Positions 27,157-45,671 of a stretch of 52,935 nt of DNA are shown here, one piece after another (within the stretch, counting starts at the first letter, position 1; each line of letters begins with the position of its first letter). The position numbers and the translations under genes were made by a program. The stretch lies in NCBI GenBank assembly GCA_029570205.1, contig JAKQSI010000042.1:1-52935 (forward strand). The letters are read 5' to 3'. The notes under the pieces were generated by a model, which saw only the letters and a list, made by a program, of their open reading frames with translations, did no database searches and had not been told where the DNA came from. Source of the stretch: Candidatus Omnitrophota bacterium. Its GTDB lineage: Bacteria; Hinthialibacterota; Hinthialibacteria; Hinthialibacterales; JAKPRU01.

Positions 27157-28791
27157 TCACATCATGCCGGGCATTCCGCCGCCGTGGGGTCCGTGCGCAT
27201 GAGCAGGCGGTTCCTTTTTGGGAATCTCCGTGACAACCGCCTCAGTGGTCAGCAAAAGTCCGGCGATGCTGACCGCATTCAGCAGCGCTGTGCGGGTCAC
27301 CATGGTCGGATCAATCACACCGGCCTTCACTAAGTCTTCGATTTGACCGGTGAGCGCGTTGTATCCCATGTTGCCTTTGGCTTTCTTGATCTGCTCCACA
27401 ATCATGCCGCCACGTTCGCCTGCATTTGTTGCAATGATCTCGGCCGGTTGCTGAATCGCAGAGGCAAGAATTTCCGCTCCCAGTTTTTCATCGCCGGGCA
27501 AGTCCAGTTCGTCCAGTTGTTTGAGGCACCGCAGAAGCGCGACTCCACCGCCCGGAACGATGCCTTCCAGCACAGCGGCACGGGTTGCATGAAGCGCGTC
27601 CTCCACACGGGCCTTTTTCTCTTTCATCTCGGATTCCGTGGCCGCGCCCACATTGATCACGGCAATCCCGCCAGACATTTTGGCAAGTCGCTCCTGGTAT
27701 TTCTCACGGTCGTAGTCGGATGTCGTTTCCAGAATCATCGTGCGAAGCTGATCCACACGCGCCTTAATCGCAGCGGTTTTTCCGCCACCCTCGATCAGCG
27801 TGGTGGAATCGGAATCGACAATTACCCGTTTGGCCGTGCCCAAATCGCGAAGGGTAATTCCTTCCAGGCGCAACCCGAGATCCTCCGAGACCACCTGCCC
27901 GCCGGTGAGAATGGCGATGTCCTGAAGCATGGCTTTGCGCCGATCTCCGAATCCCGGCGCTTTCACCGCACAGCAGGGCAGCACGCCGCGAATTCGGTTG
28001 ACTACCAGGGCAGCCAGGGCTTCTCCTTCGACATCCTCTGCTATCACCAGCAGCGGCTTGCCGGATTGCGCAACCCGCTCCAACAGGGGAAGAAAATCGT
28101 TCAAATTAGAGATCTTCTTCTCGTGCAGCAGGATCAGGCAATCTTCCAGGATTGCCTGCATGGTCTCACTCTCCGTAACAAAATATGGGGACAGATACCC
28201 CTTGTCGAACTGCATCCCTTCAACCACCTCAAGAGTCGTTTCGACGGTCTTTCCGTCTTCGACCGTAATCACACCGTCCTGCCCGACTTTCTCCATGGCA
28301 TCCGCGATCAATGACCCGATTTCGGGATCGTTGTTGGATGAAATCGAGGCGACATTCGCAATCTCTTCACGGTCCTTGACCCGTTTCGAGAGCTTATTCA
28401 ACGCCTCGGCAACTGTCTGCGCCGCCTTGTCCAGGCCGCGTTTGATCGCCATGGCGTCGTGTCCGGCAGACAGCATTTTCAGGCCGGATCGGAAAATCTC
28501 TTCCGCGATCACCGTGGCGGTTGTGGTTCCATCCCCGGCGATATCGCTCGTCTTGGAGGCCACCTCTTTCACCAGTCGAGCGCCCATATTTTCAATCGGC
28601 TTCTCCAGCTCGATTTCCTTGGCGACGGTCACTCCGTCCTTGGTGATCGTGGGGGTCCCGGATGACTTGCTCAGGGCCACGTTTCTCCCTTTCGGCCCCA
28701 ATGTGGCTTTCACCGCTCGGGCGAGCTTCTCCACACCGATCATCAACTGCTTGCGCGCTTCCGCTTCAAAGGTCAACTGCTTCGCTGCCAT
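27157..28791 (-). CDS. groEL: Chaperonin GroEL (60 kDa)
   Basis: 544 aa, standard length. Begins [17 protein letters not shown] and carries the ATP-binding segments [24 protein letters not shown] and [15 protein letters not shown]. The tail is [14 protein letters not shown], a GGM end with added His. It forms the double-ring ATP-dependent folding chamber in the cytoplasm. A GGAGAG SD supports the start. No groES lies next to it; instead it is 79 bp downstream of batE at the end of the Bat gene series. No CIRCE operator is visible upstream. It may be a second GroEL copy specialised for this context. Confidence 0.97.
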
Positions 28792-28870
28792 AGTTCATCT
28801 CTCCGTTCTATTCCGTATGATTGAATCTATGTTGTTACACTCTTGCGAGCGTTTGATTCCCCGGTACAAC

Positions 28871-29674
28871 TCAAATCACTTCCAGGTCCTTACTTGGAAG
28901 CCAGCCGGTGAAACCATTTGGGAGACGAATTTGAACCCAATCCGGACGTCTCGATTCGACTTTCACTGCTGTGCCTTCATGCAAAGAAAATGCCGCTGAA
29001 TAATTCTCCCCCGGTCCGGTCCGCACCTCGCTCACAGCCGCGAGAATGATGGCACGATTTCGGCTTTCATTTTGGTAAATCTTGATTCCCGCGCTCAGAA
29101 CACCGAACAACAAGAGGATCAACAAGGTCACGCGGAGCCACCCCGTCCGGCGCGTGATCCCGCTGTCGGGGTGAATAATCCTCCAAGCATACAAGATTGC
29201 GGTCATCCATAAAAGCAAGGCCACGCCCAGAAGGTTCTCCCGCAGGTTCAACAGGCAATTCAACCGGATAACGAACCCCATTGTGCCCCCATACTGAACC
29301 GGCTTCAGTTCCTCGTCCACCATCAGATTCCGAACAAATTCCAGATTATGACGAATATCTCGGTTGCGCGGCAAATACTCCAAAGCGCGCTCGTATTCCA
29401 GGATGGCCGGTCCGAGCTCACCTTGCCGAAAGTGCGCATTGGCCAGATTGTAATGGAGATACCCGTTCCGAATGCCCATATCCAGCAGGAATTGGTATCC
29501 GGCCTCCGCTTGGGCCAGTTGCCCCTGTTCGTACAGGGAATTAGCCAGGCGGAATATCGCGCCCCGGTTTCCGCTGCAGCTGTCGTATATTTGCGGCAAA
29601 TCCACAGCCGCGCCCGCCGGAACGGGAACAAGCGCAATCGCTGCGAACAGGCAGATCGAGAGACGCTTTATCAT
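28871..29674 (-). CDS. BatE-like TPR/SH3 membrane protein
   Basis: 267 aa from ATG 29674, which overlaps the BatD stop as ATGA and has an AGGGGAA SD; a longer upstream frame is not needed. A Sec signal peptide (IKRLSICLFAAIALVPVPAGA) is followed by TPR repeats (NGYLHYNLANAHFRQGELGP), two transmembrane segments (about 150-205) and a C-terminal bacterial SH3 domain (VRTGPGENYSAAFSLHEG, GFTGWLPSKDLEVI). This is the usual BatE architecture, and it is last of the Bat genes as in Bacteroides-type operons. Probably an envelope scaffold. Confidence 0.87.
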   Translation of the reverse strand: MIKRLSICLFAAIALVPVPAGAAVDLPQIYDSCSGNRGAIFRLANSLYEQGQLAQAEAGYQFLLDMGIRNGYLHYNLANAHFRQGELGPAILEYERALEYLPRNRDIRHNLEFVRNLMVDEELKPVQYGGTMGFVIRLNCLLNLRENLLGVALLLWMTAILYAWRIIHPDSGITRRTGWLRVTLLILLLFGVLSAGIKIYQNESRNRAIILAAVSEVRTGPGENYSAAFSLHEGTAVKVESRRPDWVQIRLPNGFTGWLPSKDLEVI

Positions 29675-31521
29675 GCCGTTTCCCCTTTGATCGCCATTAG
29701 TTTTCCAAGAAGGTTCTCGGTGCGCTGAAGGTCGGAACGAAGGTTGGAATTCATCGCGCCGCCGAACCGACACGCCTCGAAATCCTCCAGGGTAGTTATT
29801 AACTCCTGAACGTATTCATCGGGAACACCTTTTTGTTGCATCTGTCTGCCCAAGTCACGGACAGTCATTCCGGCAGCGGGAAGATTCCAGCGATTGCCGA
29901 CATAATCCACCAGGGCCTTCGTGAGCGCGGCGTAGGCCTTGTCCCCGTTGCCGCCGGCGACCGCTTTTCGCGCTTCGGACAGCATCCGCCGGGCCATTTT
30001 GGGAGCCTTCCGGTTTCGCGCATAATCCGGGTCCGTTTCCAGCCGACGCCGATGTCGTGCCCAGACCGCCGCTCCAGCCGGCATCCCCAACGGGAGCAAA
30101 CACATCAACACAAAGATCGGCTGTCGGTACAGGTCCAGACGAACGTCTATTGCCCCCGGAACGCCCACGGCTATGTGACGAAAATCCTCCCCGGTAAGAA
30201 TGATCTCCCGTTTCGCTCCGGCCCCCGCCCCCAGCAGAATCCGGTCGCTTTGGCCTTCGCCTCGCGCGGAAATCTGTAAGTGTATCGGTTCCGTGGCTAA
30301 CGTATGGTATTCATTGTCGTTCGGATTGAAAAAAGCAAAACGAATCGGGCCGATTTCCGTACTGGATGTCGATTTCGGAACCAGTACATACTCATAAGCG
30401 ATCCGCCCGGCAACGCCATCCTCCAGTACCGAGATATCCTCATTCTTTGTATTGTCATATTGCTCGAACGGAGTGAGGTCCGGCAAAGTCGGCGGCGGAC
30501 AATTCTTAATGTTTCCTTTTCCGCTGAGTTCCACGCGAAGAGTAAACGCATCTCCCTCACGCAATTCCCGCTTGTTGACCGTAGCCGTAAGGTTAAACTC
30601 TCCAACCGCGCCGTCGAAAATGTCCGGACGCCCTTCGGGGGGAAACGGGATTACCTCCAGGTTGAACGGCTGCGACGTAACATTCACCGTCTGTGTCGGA
30701 CCGAGTTGGAAAACCCCGAAGCCCATCCCGCCCACCGTTACCGATATGGCTGCCGGATCCACGTTCAGCGCTCCCGTAGAAAGCGGAAACACTACGTAAT
30801 GTTTCAGCAGCACAACCCCGACGGCTCGACCCCCAATGTTCCGGCTCTCAATCGGATATTGTGTAATGGGTAATTCTTCCACCACACACCGCTTGAACAG
30901 GCTTGTCGTAAGGTTCCCGAAATCTTCGATCTGGCGGACCTCGCTCATTTTCTGCGGGGGAACAAGAAGGAAATACCGAATGACCACCGCCTCCCCCACG
31001 TAGGCTCTCGTTTTCGACGGCTGCGCTACCAGCTGAATCACCCCCGATGAAACGCCCTGCGGCACGCCTCCCGGCGGTTGGCCCGACGGCGGACCCGGCA
31101 TCGGAGCGCCCGCCGGTACAACCGTTAAGGAAACCGCATTTCCTACGGCGCTTTCTCCCCCCTGTTCTACCCGAATACCTTCAATTGTAAAACTTCCCTC
31201 ACGTTGCGGAACCACAATACAATTTAAGGTCCGCCTGTATTCGGCGCTCATCCTCCCATTGACAATTTGAAAACTCTGCGACATTCCGCCGCCTCCCATC
31301 AAATGAAAACTCAGACCATCTACCGGCGGGACCTGCGGAACCGGCGGATTTCCCTTGTCGGAAACAATCTCGATGCTCATCCCGACTTGTTCCCCAACGT
31401 GCGCCGCCGCCTTTTCCAATGTCACACTAACAGAACACGTACCCATCGCCCTTCCCGCCGCGATCACGAACAGGAAGGCCGCCCAGACCAGCCGACACAC
31501 ATGCCGTCCACCCTTTCTCAT
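29671..31521 (-). CDS. batD: BatD family protein
   Basis: 616 aa. N-terminal signal peptide (VCRLVWAAFLFVIAAGRAMG), then tandem beta-sandwich domains of the BatD/oxygen-tolerance family (VSVTLEKAAAHVGEQVGMSI, YIVVPQREGSF-type strands), a transmembrane helix near residues 465-485 and a cytoplasmic helical tail (about 490-616). The ectodomain presumably binds partners in the periplasm while BatA/B provide VWA domains. Three bases separate it from batC upstream, and ATGA overlaps batE downstream. This is the largest of three BatD-like proteins in the operon. Confidence 0.88.
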   Translation of the reverse strand: MRKGGRHVCRLVWAAFLFVIAAGRAMGTCSVSVTLEKAAAHVGEQVGMSIEIVSDKGNPPVPQVPPVDGLSFHLMGGGGMSQSFQIVNGRMSAEYRRTLNCIVVPQREGSFTIEGIRVEQGGESAVGNAVSLTVVPAGAPMPGPPSGQPPGGVPQGVSSGVIQLVAQPSKTRAYVGEAVVIRYFLLVPPQKMSEVRQIEDFGNLTTSLFKRCVVEELPITQYPIESRNIGGRAVGVVLLKHYVVFPLSTGALNVDPAAISVTVGGMGFGVFQLGPTQTVNVTSQPFNLEVIPFPPEGRPDIFDGAVGEFNLTATVNKRELREGDAFTLRVELSGKGNIKNCPPPTLPDLTPFEQYDNTKNEDISVLEDGVAGRIAYEYVLVPKSTSSTEIGPIRFAFFNPNDNEYHTLATEPIHLQISARGEGQSDRILLGAGAGAKREIILTGEDFRHIAVGVPGAIDVRLDLYRQPIFVLMCLLPLGMPAGAAVWARHRRRLETDPDYARNRKAPKMARRMLSEARKAVAGGNGDKAYAALTKALVDYVGNRWNLPAAGMTVRDLGRQMQQKGVPDEYVQELITTLEDFEACRFGGAMNSNLRSDLQRTENLLGKLMAIKGETA

Positions 31522-31524
31522 GGT

Positions 31525-32313
31525 CTACCAATCTTTCTCTACTGTGTACGACCCGCCGCTTGGCCGGCGCAACATCTCCCGGCGTTGTTCCGCCTCATCC
31601 TCCTGAAGACGGTCCAATAGCCGTTCCGCATCCTCACGCGATAGTTGAACCTCCTTCTGCGGCTGATCGGGATTCTCGTTTTCCACTTCTTCCCCGGATT
31701 CGCTCTGCTCAGGCTGTTTCTTTTCTTTGTCCTGTTCTTTTTCGCCTTGCTGTTGTTCCTGGTTCTCTTGCCCCTGCTCTTGCTTCTGTTCCTGTTGTTG
31801 CGATTGCTGCTGTTGCTGATCCTGCGACCGTTGTTGGTTTTTCATCTTGTCCAGCTGCTCTTTTAACTTCTTTCGAGCAATCTCCAGGTTGTACTTGGCG
31901 TCTTCATCTTTATTATTCAATTTCAGCGACCGCACGTATGCCTCAATGGCCCCGGCATAGTCCTCCTGTTCAAACGAAGCATTACCGATGTTGTAATGGG
32001 CCTTTGCCTCCAGGAGGACGTCATTGGACCCGAAAACACGGCTGTACTCTTCTATAGCTTTCTGGTAATCTCCCTGCTTATACCAGCTATTGCCGATATT
32101 AAAATGCAGTTCGCGAGATTCGGGATCGAACACGGCAGCCGCATCCGCATAGATTCCCAATGCTTTCTCATACTCCCCGGCGGCGAATTGGCGATTGCCT
32201 TCCTCCACACGCTCACGGTACGGGTTCATCCACCCGGCAAAGAACATCACCGCAACACACAGTGTAAAGCATGGAACAACTCGACGATGTATGAATAGCT
32301 CGGAATTCATCAT
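31525..32313 (-). CDS. batC: BatC-like TPR protein with Gln/Glu-rich tail
   Basis: About 262 aa. ATGATG at 32313-32308 overlaps the batB stop. A hydrophobic N-terminal segment (VPCFTLCVAVMFFAGW) anchors it in the membrane. Three TPR units follow (FAAGEYEKALGIYADAAAVF, LHFNIGNSWYKQGDYQKAIEEY, AHYNIGNASFEQEDYAGAIEAY), then a low-complexity region (about 145-210) built of Q, E and K, and a charged coiled-coil end. This is standard BatC organisation. The low-complexity tract is not a sequencing artefact pattern; codons vary. Confidence 0.88.
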   Translation of the reverse strand: MMNSELFIHRRVVPCFTLCVAVMFFAGWMNPYRERVEEGNRQFAAGEYEKALGIYADAAAVFDPESRELHFNIGNSWYKQGDYQKAIEEYSRVFGSNDVLLEAKAHYNIGNASFEQEDYAGAIEAYVRSLKLNNKDEDAKYNLEIARKKLKEQLDKMKNQQRSQDQQQQQSQQQEQKQEQGQENQEQQQGEKEQDKEKKQPEQSESGEEVENENPDQPQKEVQLSREDAERLLDRLQEDEAEQRREMLRRPSGGSYTVEKDW

Positions 32314-33338
32314 CCTGCCTTCTCCTCCTGCACGATAATCCGCTTTCGATCCGATAGGATCGTCTCCAGCAGCAACAGGACAAACGCCGGTAAAAGAAAC
32401 CACTGAAAGCGGTCTTCATATTGGACAGTCAGCAGCGAACGCTGGGCCTTCTCTGCCCGATTCTGCTCAATATCTTCATAGATTTTATTCAGTTCAAACT
32501 CATCGGCGCTGGCGTGATAGTACTTCCCGCCCGTCTCGGTAGCGATTTTCAGGAGCATTCCTTCATCCAGTCTCGATTGAACCAACTCCCCGTTTTTCTG
32601 CTTTTTCCATTCTACCAGCTGTCCCTTTTCATCCCGGATCGGAATCGGCACCCCTGACAGCGAACCGATTCCAATGGTATAAATCTGTATCCCTTCCGCG
32701 GCGGCTTTCTCAACCGCGGCCATCGGATCGCCGGTTGTCTGTTCACCGTCGGTTAAAAGAATAAGAACCTTATATTGTCGTTCGGTCTCTACAAATTTGT
32801 TCCGGGCCAGATCAATCGCGCGGTCCAGGGAGGTTCCCGGTACAGGAACGCTTCCGACATCTACCTCGGATAAAAACATCTTCGCCGCGGTGTAGTCGGA
32901 CGTAAGAGGACATTGGACAAATGCCTCGCCTGCAAATACAATCAATCCGACGCGATCCCCCTGAAGCCGGTCAATGAGACGTTCGAGCTCATGTTTGGCG
33001 CGTGCCATCCGATTGGGTGTGATATCCTCGGCCAGCATCGAGGCCGAGGTATCCAGCGCAATGATGATATCCCGCCCCTTACTCACCAACGTCGTCTCTT
33101 TCATACCCCATTGTGGACGTGCCATCGCCAGGATCAGAAACAAGACCGCAAAGAACACCATCGCCAGCTTCGCCCGCTGTTTTCCCCGGCTGACATGCAC
33201 GGTTAATCGTTCCAGCAGATCGATATTTCCAATCTGTTCCAATGCTTTCCGACGCCGGAGCCACGACCAGCGAAGAAAGAAAAACAGCGGAATCAGCAAA
33301 AGCAAACCGTTTAACACAAACTCAGTTCCGAACACCAT
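32310..33338 (-). CDS. batB: BatB, VWA-domain membrane protein
   Basis: 342 aa. Transmembrane helices at about 10-25 and 58-75, then a cytoplasmic or periplasmic VWA domain with MIDAS motif D96-TSAS and downstream MIDAS-type residues in PGTSLDRAIDL and ILLTDGEQTTGD, and a C-terminal helix (about 315-332). BatA and BatB form a VWA pair that is thought to act with the MoxR ATPase in envelope-associated complex assembly or stress resistance. It lies 14 bp after batA and overlaps batC by ATGA. Confidence 0.92.
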   Translation of the reverse strand: MVFGTEFVLNGLLLLIPLFFFLRWSWLRRRKALEQIGNIDLLERLTVHVSRGKQRAKLAMVFFAVLFLILAMARPQWGMKETTLVSKGRDIIIALDTSASMLAEDITPNRMARAKHELERLIDRLQGDRVGLIVFAGEAFVQCPLTSDYTAAKMFLSEVDVGSVPVPGTSLDRAIDLARNKFVETERQYKVLILLTDGEQTTGDPMAAVEKAAAEGIQIYTIGIGSLSGVPIPIRDEKGQLVEWKKQKNGELVQSRLDEGMLLKIATETGGKYYHASADEFELNKIYEDIEQNRAEKAQRSLLTVQYEDRFQWFLLPAFVLLLLETILSDRKRIIVQEEKAG

Positions 33339-33352
33339 CGCAAACTGTTACC

Positions 33353-34369
33353 TCAGGGCAATTTCCGGAATCGTGTATTTGTCAATACGATCTCTATAAT
33401 CAATAAAATCAGGGCGGGAACGGCAAAATAGAGAAATAGTTCTTCAAACCTTCTGTGTCCTCGGGACTGGACCGTCGTTTTCTCCAGGGAGTCGATTTCT
33501 TGAAATATCTTTTGAAACGAAGCCCGGTCCGTTGCCCGGTAATACTTTCCCCCGGTCGTCTCTGCAATTCGCCGTAACACCTCCTCATCCATCGACACCT
33601 GCTGGGGAATATGCGTGATCTCCCCCATCACCTCCCGCCGTATGTAGCCCGTCCCGTAGCCGCCGATCCCAATGGTGTACACTTTCACCCCGACTGCTTT
33701 TGCCAGCTCCGCCGCCGTAATCGGGTCGATTTCGCCGGCGTTGTTCTCGCCGTCGGAAAGAAGAATGATCACCTTGCTCTTGGCTTCCGATCCGCGAAAG
33801 CGATTCACACAATTCGCCAGCGCCATCCCAATAGCCGTTCGATTGGGGTCCACCATATTGATATGCACTTGGTCAAGGAAATTCTTCAGGATTCCATAGT
33901 CGACCGTCAGCGGACATTGTGTATAGGCTTGCGCGGCGTAAACCAGCATCCCGATCCGGTCCGTTGTTCTGCCCTCTATGAAATCCCGAACAACCTCTTT
34001 GGTCACTTCGAGACGTGTCCGGTTCCCCTTCGCATCTAGGTCAATAATCTCCATACTGCCTGAAACATCAATCGCCAATACAATATCTACTCCCTCGGTC
34101 TTTACGTCCTGCAAAACGATCTCCGCCTGCGGTCGAGCCAGGGCAAGGATCAAAAGCGCAAGGATGAGCAGGCGGACAGAATAGAGCCACCGGCGAATCC
34201 TGTGCGAGAACGGCTCAACCGGTCTGCCTGCAACACCGAACGCCTCCTTGATTCTCCGCACATCCGAATAGATCATCGGGCCCGAAGCGGTCCGTCCGTG
34301 ACGCATTCGCCACCACAGAACAGGCAGAATCAATAACAACAACAGGTACAGCGGATAAGCGAATCTCAT
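33353..34369 (-). CDS. batA: BatA, VWA-domain membrane protein
   Basis: 338 aa. N-terminal helix (3-20), second helix (63-80, ILALLILALARPQ), a VWA domain with MIDAS D101-VSGS and LLSDGENNAGEIDP, and a C-terminal helix (about 312-330). The domain layout and the ARPQ motif before the VWA domain are those of BatA. It overlaps the upstream BatD-like gene by ATGA. Paired with batB as in canonical Bat operons. Confidence 0.92.
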   Translation of the reverse strand: MRFAYPLYLLLLLILPVLWWRMRHGRTASGPMIYSDVRRIKEAFGVAGRPVEPFSHRIRRWLYSVRLLILALLILALARPQAEIVLQDVKTEGVDIVLAIDVSGSMEIIDLDAKGNRTRLEVTKEVVRDFIEGRTTDRIGMLVYAAQAYTQCPLTVDYGILKNFLDQVHINMVDPNRTAIGMALANCVNRFRGSEAKSKVIILLSDGENNAGEIDPITAAELAKAVGVKVYTIGIGGYGTGYIRREVMGEITHIPQQVSMDEEVLRRIAETTGGKYYRATDRASFQKIFQEIDSLEKTTVQSRGHRRFEELFLYFAVPALILLIIEIVLTNTRFRKLP

Positions 34370-35421
34370 GATCCATCCCCCCGTGGGTTCGTCGCCGCTG
34401 CTTCATCGACCGCCGGCTCTTGAGGAGACGTCTCGACGCTTGGCACAATCTCCCGACTCATCTCCACTGCGTGAACCGCTAACTCGATCAAACGAATTGC
34501 CTTGTCCGCATCCGGTTCCTGTCGCGCAAATTTCATTAAATCGCAGCTGGAAAAGATGTCTTTGAAATGTTCTTGTGTCGCCGGCGAAATCCCCTGCTCG
34601 CGAAGCTTCGTCAGGATTTCCTCCGTGGTCATGTCCATGGCCGCGATGCTCCAGCGTCCGTGGATGTACACCCGAAGAATGTCCGATAGACGTGTAGAGA
34701 ACTCCTTATATTGCTTATTAGCCAACAGTTCCCGCTTCTCACGCAGCGCCTGAAGGGCCATCAGCGCGCGCTCATGCGGCGGCAATGGCGGTTCCAGCGC
34801 CACCTCCACCTCATCCTTTCTCCGCAGGAAAAAGAACCAGATTATCCCCGCCGTTACAAGCAGAACTGCCGCCGCGATCCCTAACACCAGCGGCCACCGA
34901 CTTCGCCCGACCACAGTGACAGGCGGCTTGATGTCCCGGATCGTTAGATTCTCTGATTCCTCGGATGTCAACTCCCGTACATGAATATCGATAGCGTCCG
35001 TCTTTACTTCGCCCATCTCCCCGGACTGTGTCCGGAATTTCACAGTGATGGGCGGAAACGTATAGTCCCCCGTGAAATAGGTGGAGAGTACATAGACATC
35101 GCTCCGGACCATTCGGCTCCCATGCCGCTCCGGGGTACCGATTCGTACATCTTTGATCTCGAATTGCCCGAGTTCCATGCCCGGAGTCGATGCCTCGATG
35201 GTAACGGACGGATCGTACGTGATCTTTACTGTGCAAAGAATGTCGTCCCCGATCGTGATCTCGTTCTTGTCTACCGTTGTCTCGATACTCGGATAGAGTT
35301 CAGCCGGGATGGCCGCCCGCACGAACATCGCGAGGCCGACGCATAGCCCCAGCAAAACCGGGCTCTGCAACAGCGGAAGTCGGACACGGAAGGAAAAACG
35401 TCTGAATGTCAATGTTCTCAT
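34366..35421 (-). CDS. BatD-like protein upstream of batA
   Basis: 351 aa. Signal-anchor (about 15-40), an extracytoplasmic beta domain (VDKNEITIGDDILCTVKITY, FTGDYTFPPITVKF), one transmembrane helix (about 178-198) and a cytoplasmic helical region (REKRELLANKQYKEFSTRLS, DILRVYIHGRW) of the kind that occupies this position in MoxR/DUF58/VWA operons. The role is probably as a membrane adaptor for BatA. ATGA overlaps at both ends point to translational coupling. Confidence 0.8.
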   Translation of the reverse strand: MRTLTFRRFSFRVRLPLLQSPVLLGLCVGLAMFVRAAIPAELYPSIETTVDKNEITIGDDILCTVKITYDPSVTIEASTPGMELGQFEIKDVRIGTPERHGSRMVRSDVYVLSTYFTGDYTFPPITVKFRTQSGEMGEVKTDAIDIHVRELTSEESENLTIRDIKPPVTVVGRSRWPLVLGIAAAVLLVTAGIIWFFFLRRKDEVEVALEPPLPPHERALMALQALREKRELLANKQYKEFSTRLSDILRVYIHGRWSIAAMDMTTEEILTKLREQGISPATQEHFKDIFSSCDLMKFARQEPDADKAIRLIELAVHAVEMSREIVPSVETSPQEPAVDEAAATNPRGDGS

Positions 35422-36698
35422 TGCTGGACCACAGTGGCCTCCGGGGTTGGGACCGGCGTCGGAAATCGATCCGAATAAATAATTACTTTTTGCTCCTCGA
35501 GCATTGTTTTCATCAGTTGCCGCATCTGTTCCTCTTCCTTCATTCGGCGAAGCGCGAGTTCCACCTGCTTTCGCACCTCGTCTAACGGTTTGTAACGTTC
35601 CGGGGTCTTGCCGGTTACAGCGAAAATATGTACACCTTTTGCCGAACGGATCGGACCGGTTGCGTCACCTGTCTCCAGGGCGCTTACCGCCCTCGCAATC
35701 TCCGGCTCGTTGCCGATCTGGGGGATGATCGAGCTCCCCTCGCGCAAGCTCCCCAGTTCCCCGCCTTTCTCTCGCGTCGAGGCATCCATGGAACATTCTT
35801 TCGCGAGATCGCTGAATTGTTCCCCCGCCTCGATGCGTTTCAGAATGTCCGCCGCCTGGTCTTCTGCCGAAAGCTGGATATGCGCAACCTGAATGGTGGC
35901 CGGGTCCTTGTACTCATCCCGATGGGCTTCGTAATACAGATTGTAATCGCTCTCATCCAGCTTCACCCGGCTCGATATTTCTTCCTCATACACTTTTTGA
36001 ATAATGAGCTGGCGCCCTATCTCGCGGAGTTGTTTCTGAACGTCCGGATTCCTTTCATACCCCTTTCTCGCCCCCATATCATACAGAAGTTCACGCAGAA
36101 CAAATTGCTCAAGAAGTTCCCGTTTCTTTGCAGGGTCGTCATACTGAGACCGGATCGGCGGCGGCATTTTATCCAGTTCCCGGTCGAGCTCGCTCATCGT
36201 AATGGTTCTGTCGCCGATTGTGGCGACAACAGGCCCGGTTGGCGATGTATCATCGCGGTCGGCATTAACATCCGCGAGTGACCGCATTTGACGCGTTGCA
36301 TCGGAGCCGCGATTCAGGTTCTCGAGACATGTAACGATATGCCGCTGCGCATCCTTCACGATCTCGGCTTGGGGATACAGTTCCTTTACACGAATGAATG
36401 TGGCCAGCGCCGATTCATAATCGCCTAGTTTGTCCTCGTAAATGGATCCGATCTTGTACAAGATATTGGCTCTGGCGCCGGGCGGAATGTCCGCGGCGTC
36501 AAGGTAAGACCTGTATGTGTCTATCGCCGCCTGGTACAATTCCTGCTGTTCCAGAACCGCCGCTAATTGTCGCAGCTGTTCCGATGCGACCTTCGGGGTA
36601 CTGTCCGGAATGAAAAAAAGCAATAAAGACAGATTTACAATCAACAGTACGATGACTGCCGTTTGAAACAATACGCCTTTCATGACTGCATACCTCAA
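35418..36698 (-). CDS. TPR and PpiC-type peptidyl-prolyl isomerase (SurA-like)
   Basis: 426 aa. An N-terminal membrane anchor (about 8-30) is followed by TPR helices (YQAAIDTYRSYLDAADIPPG, KIGSIYEDKLGDYESALATF), a SurA-like chaperone region (about 160-260: VVATIGDRTITMSELDREL, RELLYDMGARKG) and a parvulin domain (about 268-365: IQVAHIQLSAEDQAADILKR, CSMDASTREKGGELGSLREG, ETGDATGPIRSAKGVHIFAV). It should isomerise prolines and assist folding of exported proteins. It overlaps the downstream BatD-like gene by 4 bp, so it is a true member of the Bat transcript, which is unusual. Confidence 0.9.
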   Translation of the reverse strand: MRYAVMKGVLFQTAVIVLLIVNLSLLLFFIPDSTPKVASEQLRQLAAVLEQQELYQAAIDTYRSYLDAADIPPGARANILYKIGSIYEDKLGDYESALATFIRVKELYPQAEIVKDAQRHIVTCLENLNRGSDATRQMRSLADVNADRDDTSPTGPVVATIGDRTITMSELDRELDKMPPPIRSQYDDPAKKRELLEQFVLRELLYDMGARKGYERNPDVQKQLREIGRQLIIQKVYEEEISSRVKLDESDYNLYYEAHRDEYKDPATIQVAHIQLSAEDQAADILKRIEAGEQFSDLAKECSMDASTREKGGELGSLREGSSIIPQIGNEPEIARAVSALETGDATGPIRSAKGVHIFAVTGKTPERYKPLDEVRKQVELALRRMKEEEQMRQLMKTMLEEQKVIIYSDRFPTPVPTPEATVVQQ

Positions 36699-36708: not shown

Positions 36709-37584
36709 CTATAAACGACTGGCGCGCTTATTGAAAAATTGGACCAGTGGGTCGATATACGGCTGATCGGTTCTCACCGGAATATGATCGACCTGTAGAC
36801 GGCGAAAACTCCGCTGCAAATCATTTTGCATGGAGGCGTTCCGCTCGGCAAAACGACGGCGAAGATCCCAGTCATACGTGTCGATCAGTACAACCTCGCC
36901 TGTCTCGGCATCCTGTAACTCGAGGAATCCGACTGGCGGCAATTCAAGTTCCCGCGGATCGGTAATTCCAATTGTAATCAAATCGTGTTTCTGGTTAATA
37001 ATCCGCAGCGGGTCCTCATAATCGGAGCCCAGGAAGTCGGATATAACAAATACCACAGACCTGCGATGGAGTACCCGTCCAAGAAATTCCAGCGCCATCC
37101 GAAGATCCGTTCCGCTTCCTTCGGGGCGGGCATAGAGCAATTCACGGATCAACCGGAGAACATGCTTCTTTCCTTTTTTGGGAGGAATAAACTTCTCGAT
37201 CCGATTGGTAAACTCGATCAGGCCGACACAGTCATTGTTCTTAATCGCGGAAAAGGCCAGGACCGCAGACAGTTCAACCCCGAGATCCGCTTTCATCTGC
37301 TCGGCGGTCCCGAATGCTCCGGAGGACGACACATCTACCGCCAGCATAACCGTGAGCTCGCGTTCTTCCCGAAAGCGTTTCACAAACGGGTGTCCCATGC
37401 GGGCCGTGACATTCCAGTCGATAGACCGAACGTCATCGCCCAACTGGTACTCGCGGACTTCCTCAAACTCCATCCCACGCCCTTTGAAAACGGAATGGTA
37501 CTCGCCCGCCAGAACATCGTTGACGAGACGATTGGTTCGGATCTCGATTCGTCGAATCTTCTTGATTAAATCACGCGGTATCAT
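36709..37584 (-). CDS. DUF58 domain protein (MoxR partner)
   Basis: 291 aa. Signature GRGMEFEEVREYQLGDDVRS then IDWNVTARMG at about 35-63, followed by a VWA-like fold with an incomplete MIDAS (VDVSSSG at 83-89). DUF58 proteins normally follow moxR and are thought to be client adaptors of the AAA+ ATPase. Here its start overlaps the glycosyltransferase stop by 14 bp, so the usual moxR-DUF58 pair is split by that gene. Confidence 0.93.
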   Translation of the reverse strand: MIPRDLIKKIRRIEIRTNRLVNDVLAGEYHSVFKGRGMEFEEVREYQLGDDVRSIDWNVTARMGHPFVKRFREERELTVMLAVDVSSSGAFGTAEQMKADLGVELSAVLAFSAIKNNDCVGLIEFTNRIEKFIPPKKGKKHVLRLIRELLYARPEGSGTDLRMALEFLGRVLHRRSVVFVISDFLGSDYEDPLRIINQKHDLITIGITDPRELELPPVGFLELQDAETGEVVLIDTYDWDLRRRFAERNASMQNDLQRSFRRLQVDHIPVRTDQPYIDPLVQFFNKRASRL

Positions 37585-38485
37585 GTTTCTCTGTAAGCCG
37601 TTCCCTGAGCGCCCGAATCTCCTGTTGTTGGCGCCGGATTGCCTGCCCAGCCTCCGTAAGACGGGCTTCCGCCTGGCGCAGCTGCCAGGTCAGTTCCTGT
37701 ATTGTTTTATCTTTTCCGCGCATCTCGCGTTTCAGCGCAAAAGTGGATTTGAATACCTCATCGAAAATAGCATTTCGTTCGTCTTTGTAACGTTCCCGGA
37801 TGATCTTCTCTGCTTCGGGATATCGTTCTCGTTCGACCATGTTCGAGTTGTCGTCCCATCGCCGATATTCGCCGGTAATCTTCGCTATGTGGAGAAAATC
37901 ATATTTCCGCGACAGCCGGATCAAAAAATCCCAGTCTTCAAAAACTGCTAATGTCTCATCGAACAGCCCGACATCCTCCAAACAGTCACGGCGAATCAAA
38001 AGGCAGTTTACCGGAATGTAATTGCCGAGGAGAAAATTATTCCGCTCAAAATCGAACGAGTAGGTTAAATGTTCGAGTACTCGTTTCCATTCGCCGGTTT
38101 CAGGGACCCGTTCGAACGTTACATTCTTGACATCGGAATAGACAACGGGAAGGTTGCGCTCCAGGGCGACCGGGACAAGGGTCTCCAGGAAGTTCTCGTA
38201 GACAATATCATCATCGTCCAGGAATCCGATGTACCGGCCTCGCGCTCCTGTAATTCCGGTGTTGAGGGCGGCGGTGCGACCGCGATTTGTCTCATGGCAG
38301 AGGTAGCGACAGGCAAGACGACCTGCGAGGGAGTCGAGGATGCTCCGGACATCGACGCCGGCATCGTTGACCACAACGGCCTCCAGATCCCGGTAGGTCT
38401 GCCGCGCCAGACTGTCGAGGCAAACCGCGAGTCTTTCGGGCCGGTTGTAGGTACGGACAATTATCGAGACAAGTGGATCCGACAT
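37571..38485 (-). CDS. Family 2 glycosyltransferase with C-terminal coiled coil, inside the Bat operon
   Basis: 304 aa. The GT-A fold starts VSIIVRTYNRPERLAVCLDS; acidic DDDD at 90-93 (GFLDDDDIVYENF) is the metal/nucleotide-sugar motif, and RDCLEDVGLFDETLAVFEDW is the acceptor-side motif. The C-terminal 50 residues (KDKTIQELTWQLRQAEARL...) are a coiled coil. No membrane helices. Its SD (GAGGTG) overlaps the MoxR stop codon and its end overlaps DUF58, so expression is tightly coupled to both. Donor and acceptor are unknown. Confidence 0.92.
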   Translation of the reverse strand: MSDPLVSIIVRTYNRPERLAVCLDSLARQTYRDLEAVVVNDAGVDVRSILDSLAGRLACRYLCHETNRGRTAALNTGITGARGRYIGFLDDDDIVYENFLETLVPVALERNLPVVYSDVKNVTFERVPETGEWKRVLEHLTYSFDFERNNFLLGNYIPVNCLLIRRDCLEDVGLFDETLAVFEDWDFLIRLSRKYDFLHIAKITGEYRRWDDNSNMVERERYPEAEKIIRERYKDERNAIFDEVFKSTFALKREMRGKDKTIQELTWQLRQAEARLTEAGQAIRRQQQEIRALRERLTEKHDTA

Positions 38486-38494
38486 CGGAACACC

Positions 38495-39487
<993 letters not shown>

Positions 39488-39526
39488 CGATATCGTCTCC
39501 TCATATTCCATACATGGATGGGGTCA

Positions 39527-40495
39527 TCATGATTGCCGGGAAGTGTCTCGAACGGCGAGGAGGCGTTTCGCATCCTCCCAGATTCGATCCAGCTCTTCCC
39601 GGGAGGGTGTGCCCGGCGAGTATTTCCCTTCGGCACACCTTGTAAAGAACGAATCAACCAGCCGTCGGGTATCGCTATCCGTATCCGGCGGCAGATCCTT
39701 GGACGAGGTCAATCGCCCCTTGTGATAAGAGTATCGTTTCGCCAATTCCTCGCCCACAATTCGCTCAAGCGTGCTGTAATACCGCCCGGGATCTCCCTCC
39801 ATACGCCATCGGCGCGCCTGCGCAAGAAGGTCCTCAACCGGAGATGACGCGGGAGGTTGCGTGAGAAGAGGCTCCGCATGTTTCCTCCGACGACAGGCGA
39901 TCAATCGGATACCCACCGCCACAAACGCTATCCCGGCAATAATCCCGAAGGCGAGCGGCAGAAACCGACTCAGGGAAGGCTTCGCAGGCCCAATGGTTGC
40001 TTCACACGGCAACGTTGACAACCGCTTCAATTCTTCTCCATTCTTTGCACAAACCACAACCTCCGCCGATCCCACACGCGCTGTCCCCTCTTCGATCGGC
40101 ATCAGACGAAACAAATAGATTTCTTCCTTGCGAACTCCCTCAGAGGAATTGTGCGCTATGCTGCGAGTCGAGCCGGACAGAATCTTAAGATTCTCCGTTT
40201 CCGGCGTTCTATCCAGGCGCATGGAAAAAGCCTGGCCTGAATCCAGCCAGCTGACTCTAATCTGAAAAGTTACCGGCTCGCCCAGACAAAACGTCTGGTT
40301 AGAGGGGAATTCGGCTGTGACTTCAATATCTTGCTCGTCCAAAGGCGGGAGAGTGGCGGAACTTACTCCCGCATCAGCGGCATCCTGCGCCGCAAGACTA
40401 TGCGCGATTGCAAATACGCAGACGGTTAAAAGAAAAAAACGGACACTGTTTCGCAAAAAACTCAAATACGAAACACCGTCCTTACCCATCCTCAT
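39527..40495 (-). CDS. BatD-like single-pass membrane protein
   Basis: 322 aa from ATG 40495, which overlaps the upstream stop as ATGA; the open frame extends 135 codons further upstream antisense-like and is not credible there. A signal-anchor (SVRFFLLTVCVFAIAHSLAA) is followed by a beta domain (IEVTAEFPSNQTFCLGEPV, FRLMPIEEGTARVGSAEVVV), a transmembrane helix (about 195-215) and a cytoplasmic helical tail (DLLAQARRWRMEGDPGRYYS). The pattern matches BatD-like accessory proteins placed beside MoxR. Confidence 0.78.
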   Translation of the reverse strand: MRMGKDGVSYLSFLRNSVRFFLLTVCVFAIAHSLAAQDAADAGVSSATLPPLDEQDIEVTAEFPSNQTFCLGEPVTFQIRVSWLDSGQAFSMRLDRTPETENLKILSGSTRSIAHNSSEGVRKEEIYLFRLMPIEEGTARVGSAEVVVCAKNGEELKRLSTLPCEATIGPAKPSLSRFLPLAFGIIAGIAFVAVGIRLIACRRRKHAEPLLTQPPASSPVEDLLAQARRWRMEGDPGRYYSTLERIVGEELAKRYSYHKGRLTSSKDLPPDTDSDTRRLVDSFFTRCAEGKYSPGTPSREELDRIWEDAKRLLAVRDTSRQS

Positions 40496-40944
40496 TGCAT
40501 TTCCCCGGTCGCCCCCTCGATCTCCGGAGAGAATGGCCGTTGTATGACCTGAATTGATTCCTCCGCACGACGCAATGCTTCCGGGAACGGCTGATACAGA
40601 GAACGAATCGAATACAGCGCCGCGCAGAGAGTTCGTAAGGCATCCAGCCCCTGTTCCGTATTTCCCGCAGCGTTCCATTGTGCCGCAAGTTCCTCCAGGC
40701 GAGTTACGGCCTCTCGGTTCACCGGCAGGCCCGGCACGTAACTCCGCAGCGCCCACTGGTAATGCCACACCGCTTCTTTCCAATCCTGTTCGGAAACCGC
40801 TTGCTCTGCTTTCTGAAAATGACTCTCGGCCTGATAAATCAATTTCGCAACAATAAGAATCAGGATAAGGCAGGTCAGAATCAGCCCCTGCTTCACCCAC
40901 CTCACAAATTGCCTCAGACCGATCAGTCCCGAATCCTCATTCAT
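40492..40944 (-). CDS. Small single-pass membrane protein at the head of the Bat operon
   Basis: 150 aa from ATG 40944 with AAGGG upstream; longer frames run into a 9-bp repeat and are not credible. One transmembrane helix (about 20-40, ILTCLILILIVAKLIY) is followed by an extracytoplasmic helical region (ESHFQKAEQAVSEQDWKEAV, WHYQWALRSYVPG) resembling one TPR pair. Unknown function. It overlaps the BatD-like gene by ATGA and so is coupled to the Bat section. Confidence 0.72.
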   Translation of the reverse strand: MNEDSGLIGLRQFVRWVKQGLILTCLILILIVAKLIYQAESHFQKAEQAVSEQDWKEAVWHYQWALRSYVPGLPVNREAVTRLEELAAQWNAAGNTEQGLDALRTLCAALYSIRSLYQPFPEALRRAEESIQVIQRPFSPEIEGATGEMQ

Positions 40945-40973
40945 GCCCTTGCCAGTTCGCCCCATCTTCCCCT

Positions 40974-41036: not shown

Positions 41037-41038
41037 AT

Positions 41039-41063: not shown

Positions 41064-41069
41064 ACAAGG

Positions 41070-41390
41070 TTAGCTTTTTTTCTCGCCTTTCGATTTCGCC
41101 GTCGATTCCGATTTCCCGGCAGATAAATCTTTCGTGCTGCTTCCGGTGGGCTTGGATTCCTCTCTTGCCTTGCCCCTGTATTCCTTCTTCCGATAATCGG
41201 TCTCGTAGAAACCGGAGCCTTTAAAAATGATTCCGGCTCCTGCACCGATCAGGCGTTCGACAGGGCATTTCTTCTTCCTCTCCGGGCACTCGCCATTACT
41301 CTCAATGTATTTCAAAGGCTTTTCCGTCATGGACTGGAAAACCTCGATAATGCGGCCGCATTCCTTGCAGCGGTATTCGTATGTGGGCAT
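41070..41390 (-). CDS. FmdB-family zinc ribbon protein
   Basis: 106 aa, GGGAG SD. The N-terminal zinc ribbon MPTYEYRCKECGRIIEVFQS with C8/C11 and a second cysteine pair in GECPERKKKCPVERL is the FmdB/CxxC_CXXC_SSSS signature, followed by the GAGAGIIFKGSGFYETDYR segment. The Lys/Ser-rich tail (about 75-106) is disordered. FmdB-type proteins are presumed regulators or small metal-binding proteins with no settled function. It lies 72 bp after dnaK in the same direction. Confidence 0.92.
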   Translation of the reverse strand: MPTYEYRCKECGRIIEVFQSMTEKPLKYIESNGECPERKKKCPVERLIGAGAGIIFKGSGFYETDYRKKEYRGKAREESKPTGSSTKDLSAGKSESTAKSKGEKKS

Positions 41391-41462
41391 ATCATTCTCC
41401 CTCGCGCTTTCAGAAGAATACGCATCGGGAATCGACGGCGATAACCTCCGACGATTCCGCGG

Positions 41463-43421: not shown

Positions 43422-43563
43422 GGCAGATGCCTCCTTCTAGGGCCTTTACAAATGTTTAACTTTTCCATAAGGATAATATGTTCACGAAATTCTTGACCTG
43501 TTACATTTTTTACCTGCTCCAACGTCGGCCCGTCTTGCATCTCTCTGTCCCTTTCTTCAATGT

Positions 43564-44172
43564 TTAATTCTTAATTGCCCCTTCTTCTGTCGCTACCGCT
43601 ACCTTTACTCGCGGCGCTCGCAACACCCGTTCTCCAAGCACGTAGCCGGGAGTGATCTCTTCGATAATCGTGCCGGGTTCAACATCCGTACGCGCCTCTT
43701 GAAGAATCGCTTCGTGCAGGTACGGATCGAACGGTTCACCGACCGTGGCAATTCGCTCCAATCCTCGAGATCGAAGGACCTCCAGAAGGCGTCCGAAAAC
43801 CATCTCCACGCCTTCCTTGTAAGAATTCACGTCATGCGTCTCTTCGGCAACAATCCGCGCCCGGTGAAGATTATCCACCACATCCAGCAACTCCATCATA
43901 AAATCCTCAAGCAGACGATCCGCCCATTGGGCGCGCTCCCGCTCGATCCGCTTTTTATAGTTCTCAAATTCCGCCTTGAGACGTTGCAGATGATCGAGAT
44001 ATTCATCCCGTTCCTGGGCTTTCCGACTGAGTTCCTCCATATTCAGACTTGTCTCCTCTCTTGGTTCTTCGGGTTCCTGAGATTCCTTTGCCCATTGTTC
44101 CTCCAGGGCGAGTTTGATCTCTTTTTTCTTATTTTCTTTCGACGTATCCTCGATCATGGAATCCGATTTCAT
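43564..44172 (-). CDS. grpE: Nucleotide exchange factor GrpE
   Basis: 202 aa from ATG 44172, with AGAGG upstream; a start 24 bases earlier overlaps the protease stop. A charged N-terminal coiled coil (about 1-75) leads to the GrpE signature (LQRLKAEFENYKKRIERER) and a C-terminal beta domain (VGEPFDPYLHEAILQEA, GYVLGERVLRAPRVKVA). It releases ADP from DnaK. Gene order protease-grpE-dnaK on one strand suggests a stress operon. Confidence 0.95.
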   Translation of the reverse strand: MKSDSMIEDTSKENKKKEIKLALEEQWAKESQEPEEPREETSLNMEELSRKAQERDEYLDHLQRLKAEFENYKKRIERERAQWADRLLEDFMMELLDVVDNLHRARIVAEETHDVNSYKEGVEMVFGRLLEVLRSRGLERIATVGEPFDPYLHEAILQEARTDVEPGTIIEEITPGYVLGERVLRAPRVKVAVATEEGAIKN

Positions 44173-44192
44173 TGACCTCTTCCTTCCATTTT

Positions 44193-45671
44193 TCATTCGT
44201 TTGGTTTGTTCTCAATCTCCGTTCGCCATTTAGACCATCCCCGATTTTCTTCATATCGGTAGAAATATATTATGAACGTCTCGGCATTCGCCAATTTCCT
44301 GCGGAGGATATCAATATCCGTCAGATCACTAACTCGAAATACAGCATTGGCCAGACCCGGAGCCGCAATCTCGGTAATGATATCTCCAGGTTCCAGCTCG
44401 GCCCGATCTGCTGGAGAATTGTTCGCCACCCTGCTCACCACAAGCCCCTCAACCGATGAATCCATATTCCACTGTTTCCGCCATTTCTGGTCGAGAGGCT
44501 TCAGCTCCATTCCAAGCCATTGGTTATTATCTTTCGGGCCGGATTGCCTGGATGCTCGAGCGGATCCAGGTTTCAAAGCAATACTCACATTCCGGGATTT
44601 CCCTTCACGCAGTATGCCGATTTGGACATCGGAAGCGTTCACCGGAACCAGTTCCGTGCCGATATCATCCCCGGACCGGATTCGTCTCCCGTTGACCAAT
44701 TGAATAAGGTCCAGCGGCTCCAATTGCCCCGAGGCCGCACCCGATGGATCAACATTCGTAACCAGCACACCGGACAGATCCTTCACCGAACGAAATCCGG
44801 GTATTTTCGAACGCAGCGCCATTCGCAGCGTCGGTGAAAGATCTTGAAACTGGATTCCAAGGCGATATTCCAGGGGCGGCTGCCTCAGAACATAGTAGTT
44901 GTACACTTTCCGAACACGATTGACCGGAATAGCGAACCCGATTCCCACCGAACCACCCGAAGGTGTTGCGATAGCCGTGTTGATTCCGATCAATTCGCCA
45001 TCCAAATTGATCAGCGGGCCGCCGCTGTTGCCCGGATTAATATCTGCATCGGTCTGGATCAGGTTCGGCAGAACCACACCGTTATCGCCTTCGATATACC
45101 GACCCAGTTGACTGATAATGCCTTGGGTTACCGTATGGCTTTGTCCCAACGCATACCCGATGGCGATCACAGTCTCCCCGATCATAAGGTCCGATGAATT
45201 TCCCAGGGGCAGGTACTGTTTCGGCGGTTCACCGAGAATCCTTAGAACGGCAATGTCCTCCGCGGGATCGCGCCCTACAATCTCCGCTTTGCGCTGTTCG
45301 TCTTCGCCGTGCAGAAGAACCAGAATCTCATCCGGCTCCGCTCCCTCTCCCTCCCCGTAACTGACCACATGACTGTTGGTGATTACATACCCCTCACGGT
45401 CCACCACCACACCGGAACCGAGCGAGGTCCCGACATAAGTATCCTGAAATAATCCGCGCGGCAGAAAAAAGTCGTCGAAGGGTGTTCGGAACAGCAAGAA
45501 CGGCGACCTGTCCACACGGATCTTCTTTTTCGTGCTGATATCGACAACAGCCGGAATGGCTTTCTCAACAGCCAGAACCACCGGTGTCCGACGGGTATCA
45601 ACCGAAGCCTCTATCGGACCCGGCATTGAAAAAGCGACTATGATTGCCAATCCGACAATGAATCTCTTCAT
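44193..45671 (-). CDS. DegP/HtrA-type periplasmic serine protease with two PDZ domains
   Basis: 492 aa from ATG 45671 (longer frames exist; no clear SD). A Sec signal peptide (MKRFIVGLAIIVAFSMPGPI) precedes a trypsin-like domain with triad H101 (VITNSHVVSYG), D139 (DPAEDIAVLRI) and S216 (DINPGNSGGPL). PDZ1 (about 270-360: LGIQFQDLSPTLRMAL, SGVLVTNVDPSGAA) and PDZ2 (about 385-490: WLGMELKPLD, LVVSRVANNSPADRAELEPG) follow. Cleaves or refolds misfolded envelope proteins. It lies 20 bp upstream of grpE, joining envelope and cytoplasmic quality control. Confidence 0.93.
   Translation of the reverse strand: MKRFIVGLAIIVAFSMPGPIEASVDTRRTPVVLAVEKAIPAVVDISTKKKIRVDRSPFLLFRTPFDDFFLPRGLFQDTYVGTSLGSGVVVDREGYVITNSHVVSYGEGEGAEPDEILVLLHGEDEQRKAEIVGRDPAEDIAVLRILGEPPKQYLPLGNSSDLMIGETVIAIGYALGQSHTVTQGIISQLGRYIEGDNGVVLPNLIQTDADINPGNSGGPLINLDGELIGINTAIATPSGGSVGIGFAIPVNRVRKVYNYYVLRQPPLEYRLGIQFQDLSPTLRMALRSKIPGFRSVKDLSGVLVTNVDPSGAASGQLEPLDLIQLVNGRRIRSGDDIGTELVPVNASDVQIGILREGKSRNVSIALKPGSARASRQSGPKDNNQWLGMELKPLDQKWRKQWNMDSSVEGLVVSRVANNSPADRAELEPGDIITEIAAPGLANAVFRVSDLTDIDILRRKLANAETFIIYFYRYEENRGWSKWRTEIENKPNE

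What the first reader, a model, noticed from the sequence alone, without database searches (positions are those of the whole stretch)
27157..45671. Bat/MoxR operon embedded in a chaperone and envelope-protease gene series
Seventeen consecutive minus-strand genes run DegP-type protease, grpE, dnaK, FmdB-like, small TM protein, BatD-like, moxR, GT2, DUF58, TPR-PpiC isomerase, BatD-like, batA, batB, batC, batD, batE, groEL. Spacings in the Bat part are -4, 39, 9, -14, 10, -4, -4, 14, -4, 3 and -4 bp. Known Bat operons have moxR-DUF58-batA-E; joining them to Hsp70, Hsp60, DegP and a SurA-like isomerase suggests a dedicated folding and quality-control system for envelope or metal proteins. The operon structure is read from sequence; the joint role is inference.
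Basis: partly seen in the sequence, partly recalled or inferred. Interest (0 to 1): 0.68.

Follow-up and report, generated by a model that had tools for sequence, protein, structure and literature searches.

The report
Chaperone genes joined to Bat operon
In a little-known bacterial class, the cell's main heat-shock chaperone genes sit in one conserved run of genes with the poorly understood MoxR/Bat membrane machine and a spare GroEL, which suggests that Bat is part of the general protein-repair system; each gene is of a known kind, and the arrangement is the news.

Summary
Seventeen minus-strand genes (45671 down to 27157) read degP-grpE-dnaK-fmdB-TPR/TM-BatD-like-moxR-GT2-DUF58-PpiC-BatD-like-batA-B-C-D-E-groEL. 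The proposed refutation (no linkage in relatives) failed. The dnaK-to-moxR linkage holds in all 13 class genomes where it can be read. This includes one genome in which the cluster was cut between moxR and DUF58 and the chaperones stayed with moxR. The flanking genes are not conserved. GroEL is a second, monophyletic, faster-evolving paralogue without groES. It sits at the Bat locus in all ten class genomes that have two groELs. Other phyla show related pairings with dnaK, clpB, hsp20, htpG, degP or groESL, and Leptospira has bat-htpG (PMC3557215). The 'dedicated' Hsp70 is not supported: this is the cell's only canonical DnaK. Best reading: the MoxR-Bat machine is an arm of the general heat/envelope proteostasis response, with a specialised extra chaperonin. 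Co-transcription, regulation and clients are untested. No HrcA or CIRCE was found, and no sigma-32 over the family cut-off. It is a new variant of a known kind.

The parts
44193..45671 (-). degP/HtrA-type periplasmic serine protease with signal peptide and two PDZ domains
   Evidence: Trypsin_2 112.6 bits, PDZ; best NCBIfam hit 'Do family' at 312.7 bits, below its 416.2 cut-off; His, Asp and Ser of the triad readable
43564..44196 (-). grpE
   Evidence: PF01025 148.7 bits
41463..43421 (-). dnaK, the only canonical DnaK of the genome
   Evidence: TIGR02350 998 bits over cut-off 822.55; other Hsp70s at most 584 bits to PF00012
41070..41390 (-). FmdB-like zinc-ribbon protein
   Evidence: PF09723 38.3 bits; CxxC motifs
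40492..40942 (-). small protein with one TM helix and a weak TPR-like segment; occupies the place of the small TPR protein upstream of moxR in KSB1 loci
   Evidence: (hhalign to BatC 93.8%); positional equivalent in L013/L028
39527..40495 (-). BatD-like receptor 1 (Ig-like domain, TM, cytosolic helical domain)
   Evidence: hhalign to BatD 98.7%, to BatD-like 2 99.3%
38495..39511 (-). moxR AAA+ ATPase
   Evidence: PF07726 223.5 bits; Walker A and B intact
37571..38485 (-). GT2 glycosyltransferase inserted between moxR and DUF58; order-specific
   Evidence: PF00535 88 bits; present between moxR and DUF58 in 9/9 genomes of the order, absent in the other families
36709..37584 (-). DUF58 protein with VWA domain and MIDAS motif
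   Evidence: PF01882 284 bits; DVSSS motif
35418..36683 (-). TPR plus parvulin (PpiC-type) peptidyl-prolyl isomerase with N-terminal TM helix
   Evidence: PF13145 61.7 bits, TPR; TM helix
34366..35421 (-). BatD-like receptor 2
   Evidence: hhalign to BatD 99.8%; AlphaFold model: beta-sandwich 45-149, TM 176-202, helical bundle 215-321, mean pLDDT 84
33353..34369 (-). batA, VWA protein
   Evidence: PF00092 82.5 and PF07584 43.1 bits, both over cut-off; MIDAS DVSGS
32310..33338 (-). batB, VWA protein
   Evidence: PF00092 80.4 and PF07584 26.9 bits, both over cut-off; MIDAS DTSAS
31525..32313 (-). batC, TPR protein
   Evidence: TPR families; NF047507 94 bits, below its 175 cut-off
29671..31521 (-). 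batD
   Evidence: PF13584 95.8 bits over 24.1
28871..29674 (-). batE, TPR plus SH3
   Evidence: PF08239 37.5, PF07719 32.5 bits
27157..28791 (-). groEL2, Bat-linked chaperonin paralogue without groES
   Evidence: TIGR02348 799.5 bits over 582.1; second copy in genome; groES only at the other locus; clade
27101..27126 (-). intrinsic-terminator-like hairpin right after groEL2
   Evidence: 11 bp stem, longest of the region; number of such sites overall not above chance
45672..46186 (-). presumed promoter region of degP, facing a divergent plus-strand gene; parts conserved in a congener
   Evidence: no promoter demonstrated

Best explanation
This is an extended MoxR-Bat envelope machine built into the organism's principal Hsp70 heat-shock gene cluster and, in this lineage, joined by a specialised second GroEL. 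Shown: gene content, order and conservation; intact ATPase, MIDAS and protease motifs; three BatD-type receptors that share an Ig-like domain, one TM helix and a cytosolic helical domain; GroEL2 as a separate clade with ATP-, substrate- and GroES-contact residues kept. Inferred: under heat or envelope stress the block is co-expressed. DnaK/GrpE and GroEL2 (using the single GroES made elsewhere) hold and fold proteins in the cytosol. MoxR with the DUF58 VWA protein docks on the cytosolic domains of the BatD-type receptors and remodels membrane or exported clients in contact with BatA/B. The TPR-parvulin and DegP refold or degrade clients in the periplasm.
For: grpE-dnaK-fmdB upstream of moxR in 13/13 readable class genomes; degP at the head in 9/12; groEL2 at the Bat end in 10/10 genomes with two groELs. 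When G012 split the cluster, the chaperone block stayed with moxR. Flank genes are not conserved beyond the genus. Related pairings elsewhere: degP-dnaK-clpB-TPR-BatD-moxR in KSB1 (L013, G058), dnaK-clpB (G014), dnaK-hsp20 (G068), grpE-dnaJ-degP-dnaK (L028), htpG in two Omnitrophota loci, groESL just upstream of moxR (G055). dnaK within 10 kb on the same strand in 3 of 49 other-phylum genomes against 0.2 expected. Literature: heat raises bat transcription and moxR affects heat survival in Riemerella (PMC11834572); a MoxR protein prevents thermal aggregation with ATP (PMC11432383); bat-htpG neighbours in Leptospira (PMC3557215); stand-alone GroEL2 uses the single GroES in Myxococcus (PMC5406781). 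Motifs. Receptors.
Against: No expression data. No HrcA (5 genomes), no CIRCE in the window, no sigma factor over the RpoH cut-off, so no known heat-shock control is identified. Chaperone-block junctions are 72-142 bp and gaps in relatives reach several hundred bp. Most other phyla (over 85% of those sampled) have Bat without adjacent chaperones. In Leptospira, genes in the bat-htpG run appeared independently transcribed (PMC3557215).
Confidence: 0.58

Rival explanations
1. Conserved neighbourhood without functional union: the housekeeping degP-grpE-dnaK cluster and the Bat operon are neighbours kept together by shared high expression or inheritance in this class. Each block has its own promoter, and GroEL2 is a spare chaperonin that landed downstream.
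For: 72-142 bp junctions in the chaperone part, low-complexity insertions in G001 at the grpE-dnaK gap; independent transcription seen in the Leptospira bat-htpG run (PMC3557215); most other phyla lack the linkage.
Against: The chaperone block stayed with moxR when G012 split the cluster; recurrent pairing of Bat with different chaperones in several phyla above a rough random expectation; flanks outside the block are not conserved.
Confidence: 0.27
2. Dedicated metalloprotein maturation cassette: MoxR-DUF58-BatA/B insert a metal cofactor into an envelope enzyme, as NorQ-NorD do for nitric oxide reductase, with chaperones recruited for that client.
For: MoxR with VWA proteins bearing intact MIDAS motifs is the NorQD-like pair (PMC9976466); FmdB-like zinc ribbon in the cluster.
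Against: No metalloenzyme gene was recognised in the cluster or among the flanking genes scanned, apart from radical-SAM genes more than 10 kb away on the other strand; the DnaK is the general one, not a dedicated one.
Confidence: 0.1
3. Aerotolerance system: Bat proteins supply reducing power or protect against oxidative damage in the periplasm, as first proposed for Bacteroides fragilis.
For: Same batA-E gene set.
Against: Deletion of bat genes in Leptospira biflexa gave no oxidative-stress phenotype (PMC3557215); no redox enzyme in the cluster.
Confidence: 0.05

Closest known systems
Bat operon (moxR-DUF58-batA-E) of Bacteroides, Riemerella, Leptospira
   Same: MoxR, DUF58, BatA/B with VWA and MIDAS, TPR proteins BatC/E, BatD, in the same order
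   Different: Here headed by degP-grpE-dnaK-fmdB, with two extra BatD-type receptors, a TPR-parvulin, an inserted GT2 and a terminal groEL2
Leptospira bat-htpG cluster (PMC3557215)
   Same: A cytosolic heat-shock chaperone gene directly beside bat genes; HtpG about fourfold lower in the membrane fraction of the bat deletion
   Different: Hsp90 there; Hsp70, GrpE, DegP and Hsp60 here
   Same: dnaK (with degP, clpB, hsp20 or dnaJ) upstream of moxR, often with a small TPR protein and a BatD-like protein between
   Different: No GT2, no groEL at the end in the stretches read, clpB or hsp20 added
Stand-alone second GroEL, e.g. Myxococcus xanthus GroEL2 (PMC5406781)
   Same: Second groEL without groES in a genome with one groES
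   Different: Tied to the Bat operon in ten of ten class genomes with two groELs; inter-ring pair charge-swapped in this genus
NorQ-NorD MoxR/VWA pair (PMC9976466)
   Same: MoxR AAA+ ring acting with a VWA protein through its MIDAS
   Different: One VWA partner and one known client there; three VWA proteins, three membrane receptors and no known client here

Membership tests
Bat operon | MoxR AAA+ ATPase with Walker motifs | tested here: met
   PF07726 223.5 bits; GVPGLAKT and VLADE
Bat operon | DUF58 protein next to moxR | tested here: met
   PF01882 284 bits; separated from moxR by one GT2 gene
Bat operon | Two membrane VWA proteins (BatA/BatB N-terminal domain) with MIDAS | tested here: met
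   PF07584 43.1 and 26.9 bits over 25.9; DxSxS motifs
Bat operon | BatD and TPR proteins BatC, BatE | tested here: met
   PF13584 95.8 bits; TPR hits
Bat operon | Stress-survival (aerotolerance or heat) phenotype | not testable with these tools
   needs a genetic experiment
GroEL (group I chaperonin) | NCBIfam GroEL equivalog over cut-off | tested here: met
   TIGR02348 799.5 over 582.1
GroEL (group I chaperonin) | ATPase and GroES/substrate contact residues (D52, D87, D398, Y199, Y203, F204, L234, L237, L259, V263, V264) | tested here: met
   all kept in the window's GroEL2
GroEL (group I chaperonin) | groES in the same operon | tested here: not met
   only groES is on contig C113; G011 still has groES at its Bat locus
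DnaK | NCBIfam DnaK equivalog over cut-off | tested here: met
   TIGR02350 998 over 822.55
DegP/HtrA (Do family) | Trypsin-like domain plus PDZ domains, signal peptide | tested here: met
DegP/HtrA (Do family) | NCBIfam Do-family model over cut-off | tested here: not met
   312.7 bits against 416.2; HtrA-like, subfamily unsure
HrcA/CIRCE heat-shock operon | CIRCE element and hrcA gene | tested here: not met
   no CIRCE in the window with up to 3 mismatches; HrcA in 0 of 5 class genomes
Sigma-32 heat-shock regulon | RpoH-type sigma factor and promoter | tested here: inconclusive
   sigma factors match rpoH_proteo only below cut-off in 5 genomes; no promoter shown
Single operon | One transcript from degP to groEL | not testable with these tools
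   spacing, strand, divergent upstream gene and terminator are compatible

The most novel reading that the evidence does not exclude
GroEL2 is an orthogonal chaperonin specialised for the MoxR-Bat machine or its exported clients. It forms its own double rings (inter-ring pair R452/E461 reversed to E/R in this genus, neutralised or partly lost in some relatives) and hands folded or held clients to the BatD-type receptors.
Probability: 0.13. Interest if true: 0.72.

Novelty: new variant of a known kind. Interest (0 to 1): 0.46.

Why it matters
What MoxR-Bat machines do is a long-standing open question; the oxidative-stress idea has not held up in Leptospira. A class-wide lock between the main Hsp70 genes and moxR, recurring pairing with other heat-shock chaperones in unrelated phyla, and a Bat-bound GroEL paralogue point to general proteostasis. 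That gives direct tests: heat induction, aggregate load, and pull-down of BatD cytosolic domains with MoxR/DUF58.

Tried and rejected
CIRCE search in the window with 3 mismatches: none. HrcA in five class genomes: none. RpoH: no match over cut-off. Promoter and terminator scan: numbers at chance, only the terminator after groEL stands out by stem length. Intercistronic hairpin before groEL: conserved in three congeners but folding is not unusual (z -1.53). Wanted a dedicated Hsp70: rejected, it is the only canonical DnaK. Fold search with the BatD-like 2 model: only generic Ig-plus-TM matches such as translocon-associated TRAP subunits, nothing recognisable for the cytosolic helical bundle. 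Chlamydia heat-shock paper: the DUF58 matches were DUF582, irrelevant. Taxonomic name of the class: not established.
Full report
Observation. The window carries 17 consecutive minus-strand genes from degP (starts 45671) to groEL (ends 27157). Small corrections: the 'small TM protein' is 40492-40942, with a weak TPR-like segment; the PpiC gene more likely starts at an ATG at 36683 than at the TTG; moxR has two possible starts. Genes from the TM protein to batE are packed tightly (-14 to about 39 bp). The junctions grpE-dnaK, dnaK-fmdB, fmdB-TM and batE-groEL are 72-142 bp. A divergent plus-strand gene lies upstream (start near 46187), and the longest-stem terminator of the region lies right after groEL.

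Conservation inside the class. The genome (G000, 4.39 Mb, 93% complete) has 13 held relatives in its class, in five families. The canonical DnaK gene of each genome, well separated from the weaker Hsp70 paralogues, lies upstream of moxR with grpE and fmdB in G000, G001 and G003-G013, that is 13 of 13 genomes where it can be read (grpE of G008 lies beyond its contig end). G002's contig breaks inside the BatD-like gene. In G012 the cluster has been cut exactly between moxR and DUF58: degP-grpE-dnaK-fmdB-TM-BatD-like-moxR is at C2:431-438 kb and DUF58-PpiC-BatD-like-batA-E at C2:120 kb. degP heads the block in 9 of 12 readable genomes. In G004 and G007 the upstream gene is an MGS/AICAR-transformylase-type gene instead. 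The GT2 gene stands between moxR and DUF58 in all nine genomes of the order and in none of the other families, where moxR and DUF58 are 20-60 bp apart. Genes outside the block are not conserved beyond the genus.

The second GroEL. Ten class genomes have two groEL genes, and in all ten one copy sits after batE. The four genomes of families f3 and f4 have a single groEL on another contig. G000's single groES is with the other copy. In a maximum-likelihood tree the Bat-linked GroELs of the order form one clade (100/99). The G011 copy, which has broken frames, falls outside it with low support. They diverge faster than the housekeeping GroELs of the same genomes (65-71% against 79-82% identity to G000 for the order's second family). 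All tested ATPase, substrate and GroES-contact residues are kept in the window's protein. In this genus the inter-ring pair R452/E461 (E. coli numbering) is reversed to E452/R461; in G006 and G007 it is partly or wholly neutral. G011 still has a groES upstream of its Bat-linked groEL. This suggests that a groESL copy came first and groES was lost in the order; that is inference.

Not a dedicated Hsp70. In G000 the cluster's DnaK scores 884 bits to HSP70 and the next Hsp70s 584 and 580. DnaJ, with its zinc-finger domain, is elsewhere in single copy. So the Bat genes are attached to the general Hsp70 genes, not the reverse.

Other phyla. Among 80 named loci found by DUF58 similarity and 49 further genomes with a close DUF58, most have moxR-DUF58-bat without chaperones. 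The exceptions form a pattern. KSB1 locus L013 reads degP-dnaK-clpB-TPR-BatD-like-moxR-DUF58-PpiC-BatD-like-batA-E, and G058 has the same layout. L028 has grpE-dnaJ-degP-dnaK upstream, G014 dnaK-clpB, G068 dnaK-hsp20, G067 clpB. Two Omnitrophota loci (L032, L035) have htpG, and G055 has groES-groEL directly upstream of moxR. For the 49 genomes a rough random-placement expectation gives 0.2 genomes with dnaK within 10 kb on the same strand; 3 were found (Poisson P about 0.001). For dnaK, groEL or clpB together, 5 were found against 0.6 expected. This ignores shared ancestry between families and assumes one clpB per genome, so it is only an indication.

Anatomy and mechanism. MoxR has Walker A and B; DUF58, BatA and BatB have DxSxS MIDAS motifs; DegP has its catalytic residues. 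BatD and the two BatD-like proteins are homologous across the Ig-like domain and the cytosolic part (98.7-99.8%). An AlphaFold model of BatD-like 2 (44 sequences, mean pLDDT 84) shows an N-terminal helix, an Ig-like sandwich (45-149), a TM helix (176-202) and a cytosolic helical bundle (215-321). The bundle has no solved look-alike in the best matches. The cluster therefore encodes three receptors with the same cytosolic domain, a plausible docking site for MoxR/DUF58; that step is inference. In Riemerella, heat raises bat transcription and moxR level tracks heat survival (PMC11834572). A cyanobacterial MoxR protects citrate synthase from thermal aggregation with ATP (PMC11432383). In Leptospira biflexa, htpG follows the bat genes and HtpG falls about fourfold in the membrane fraction of the deletion, while no oxidative phenotype was found (PMC3557215); the authors note that this fall matches a fall in htpG transcript, so it may be a polar effect. 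In Myxococcus, a stand-alone GroEL2 works with the single GroES (PMC5406781). NorQ-NorD shows how a MoxR ring uses a VWA MIDAS to remodel a membrane client (PMC9976466). Together these favour a general heat/envelope proteostasis role.

What is not shown. No transcript, no regulator and no client. HrcA was not found in five class genomes and no CIRCE lies in the window; no sigma factor passes the RpoH model's cut-off, so how these bacteria control heat shock is open. Literature searches of an open-access library turned up no report of a Bat operon joined to dnaK or groEL; most subscription papers are not in it.

Verdict. The finding is real, conserved and more than chance. Every part belongs to a known family; the combination, the class-wide lock of moxR to the main Hsp70 genes and the Bat-bound GroEL paralogue are the new part. 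New variant of a known kind.

Noticed in passing
window 27157-28791: GroEL2 of this genus has the inter-ring salt-bridge pair R452/E461 reversed to E452/R461 relative to its own housekeeping GroEL, which might keep the two GroELs from forming mixed rings.
   Followed up: partly
L098 and L176 (G011): The Bat-linked groEL of G011 is preceded by groES, but groEL and dnaK reading frames in this genome are broken in places; sequencing error or decay not decided.
   Followed up: partly
window 28792-28870, minus strand: A short hairpin with GNRA-type loop (ACGCTC-GCAA-GAGTGT) between batE and groEL is conserved in three congeners; G001 has a duplicated copy about 400 bp apart.
   Followed up: partly
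L013, L028, L007, L008 and others: The TPR-parvulin gene after DUF58 is widespread in Bat operons of KSB1, Zixibacteria, Gemmatimonadota, Victivallales and Hydrogenedentes.
   Followed up: partly
window 37571-38485: GT2 glycosyltransferase inserted between moxR and DUF58 with a 14 bp overlap, conserved in the whole order; its target is unknown.
   Followed up: partly
G000:C99 (L109): A second, divergent Hsp70 has its own GrpE-like neighbour (44 and 32% identity).
   Followed up: no
window 21519-24818 and 25065-25877, minus strand: Downstream of the cluster lie a type ISP restriction-modification enzyme and an FCD/GntR regulator.
   Followed up: no
window 34366-35421: The conserved cytosolic helical bundle of BatD-type proteins, with a Cys-Asp-x-x-Lys-Phe-Ala-like motif, shows no solved look-alike among the best fold matches; the Ig-plus-TM part resembles TRAP translocon subunits only in general shape.
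   Followed up: partly
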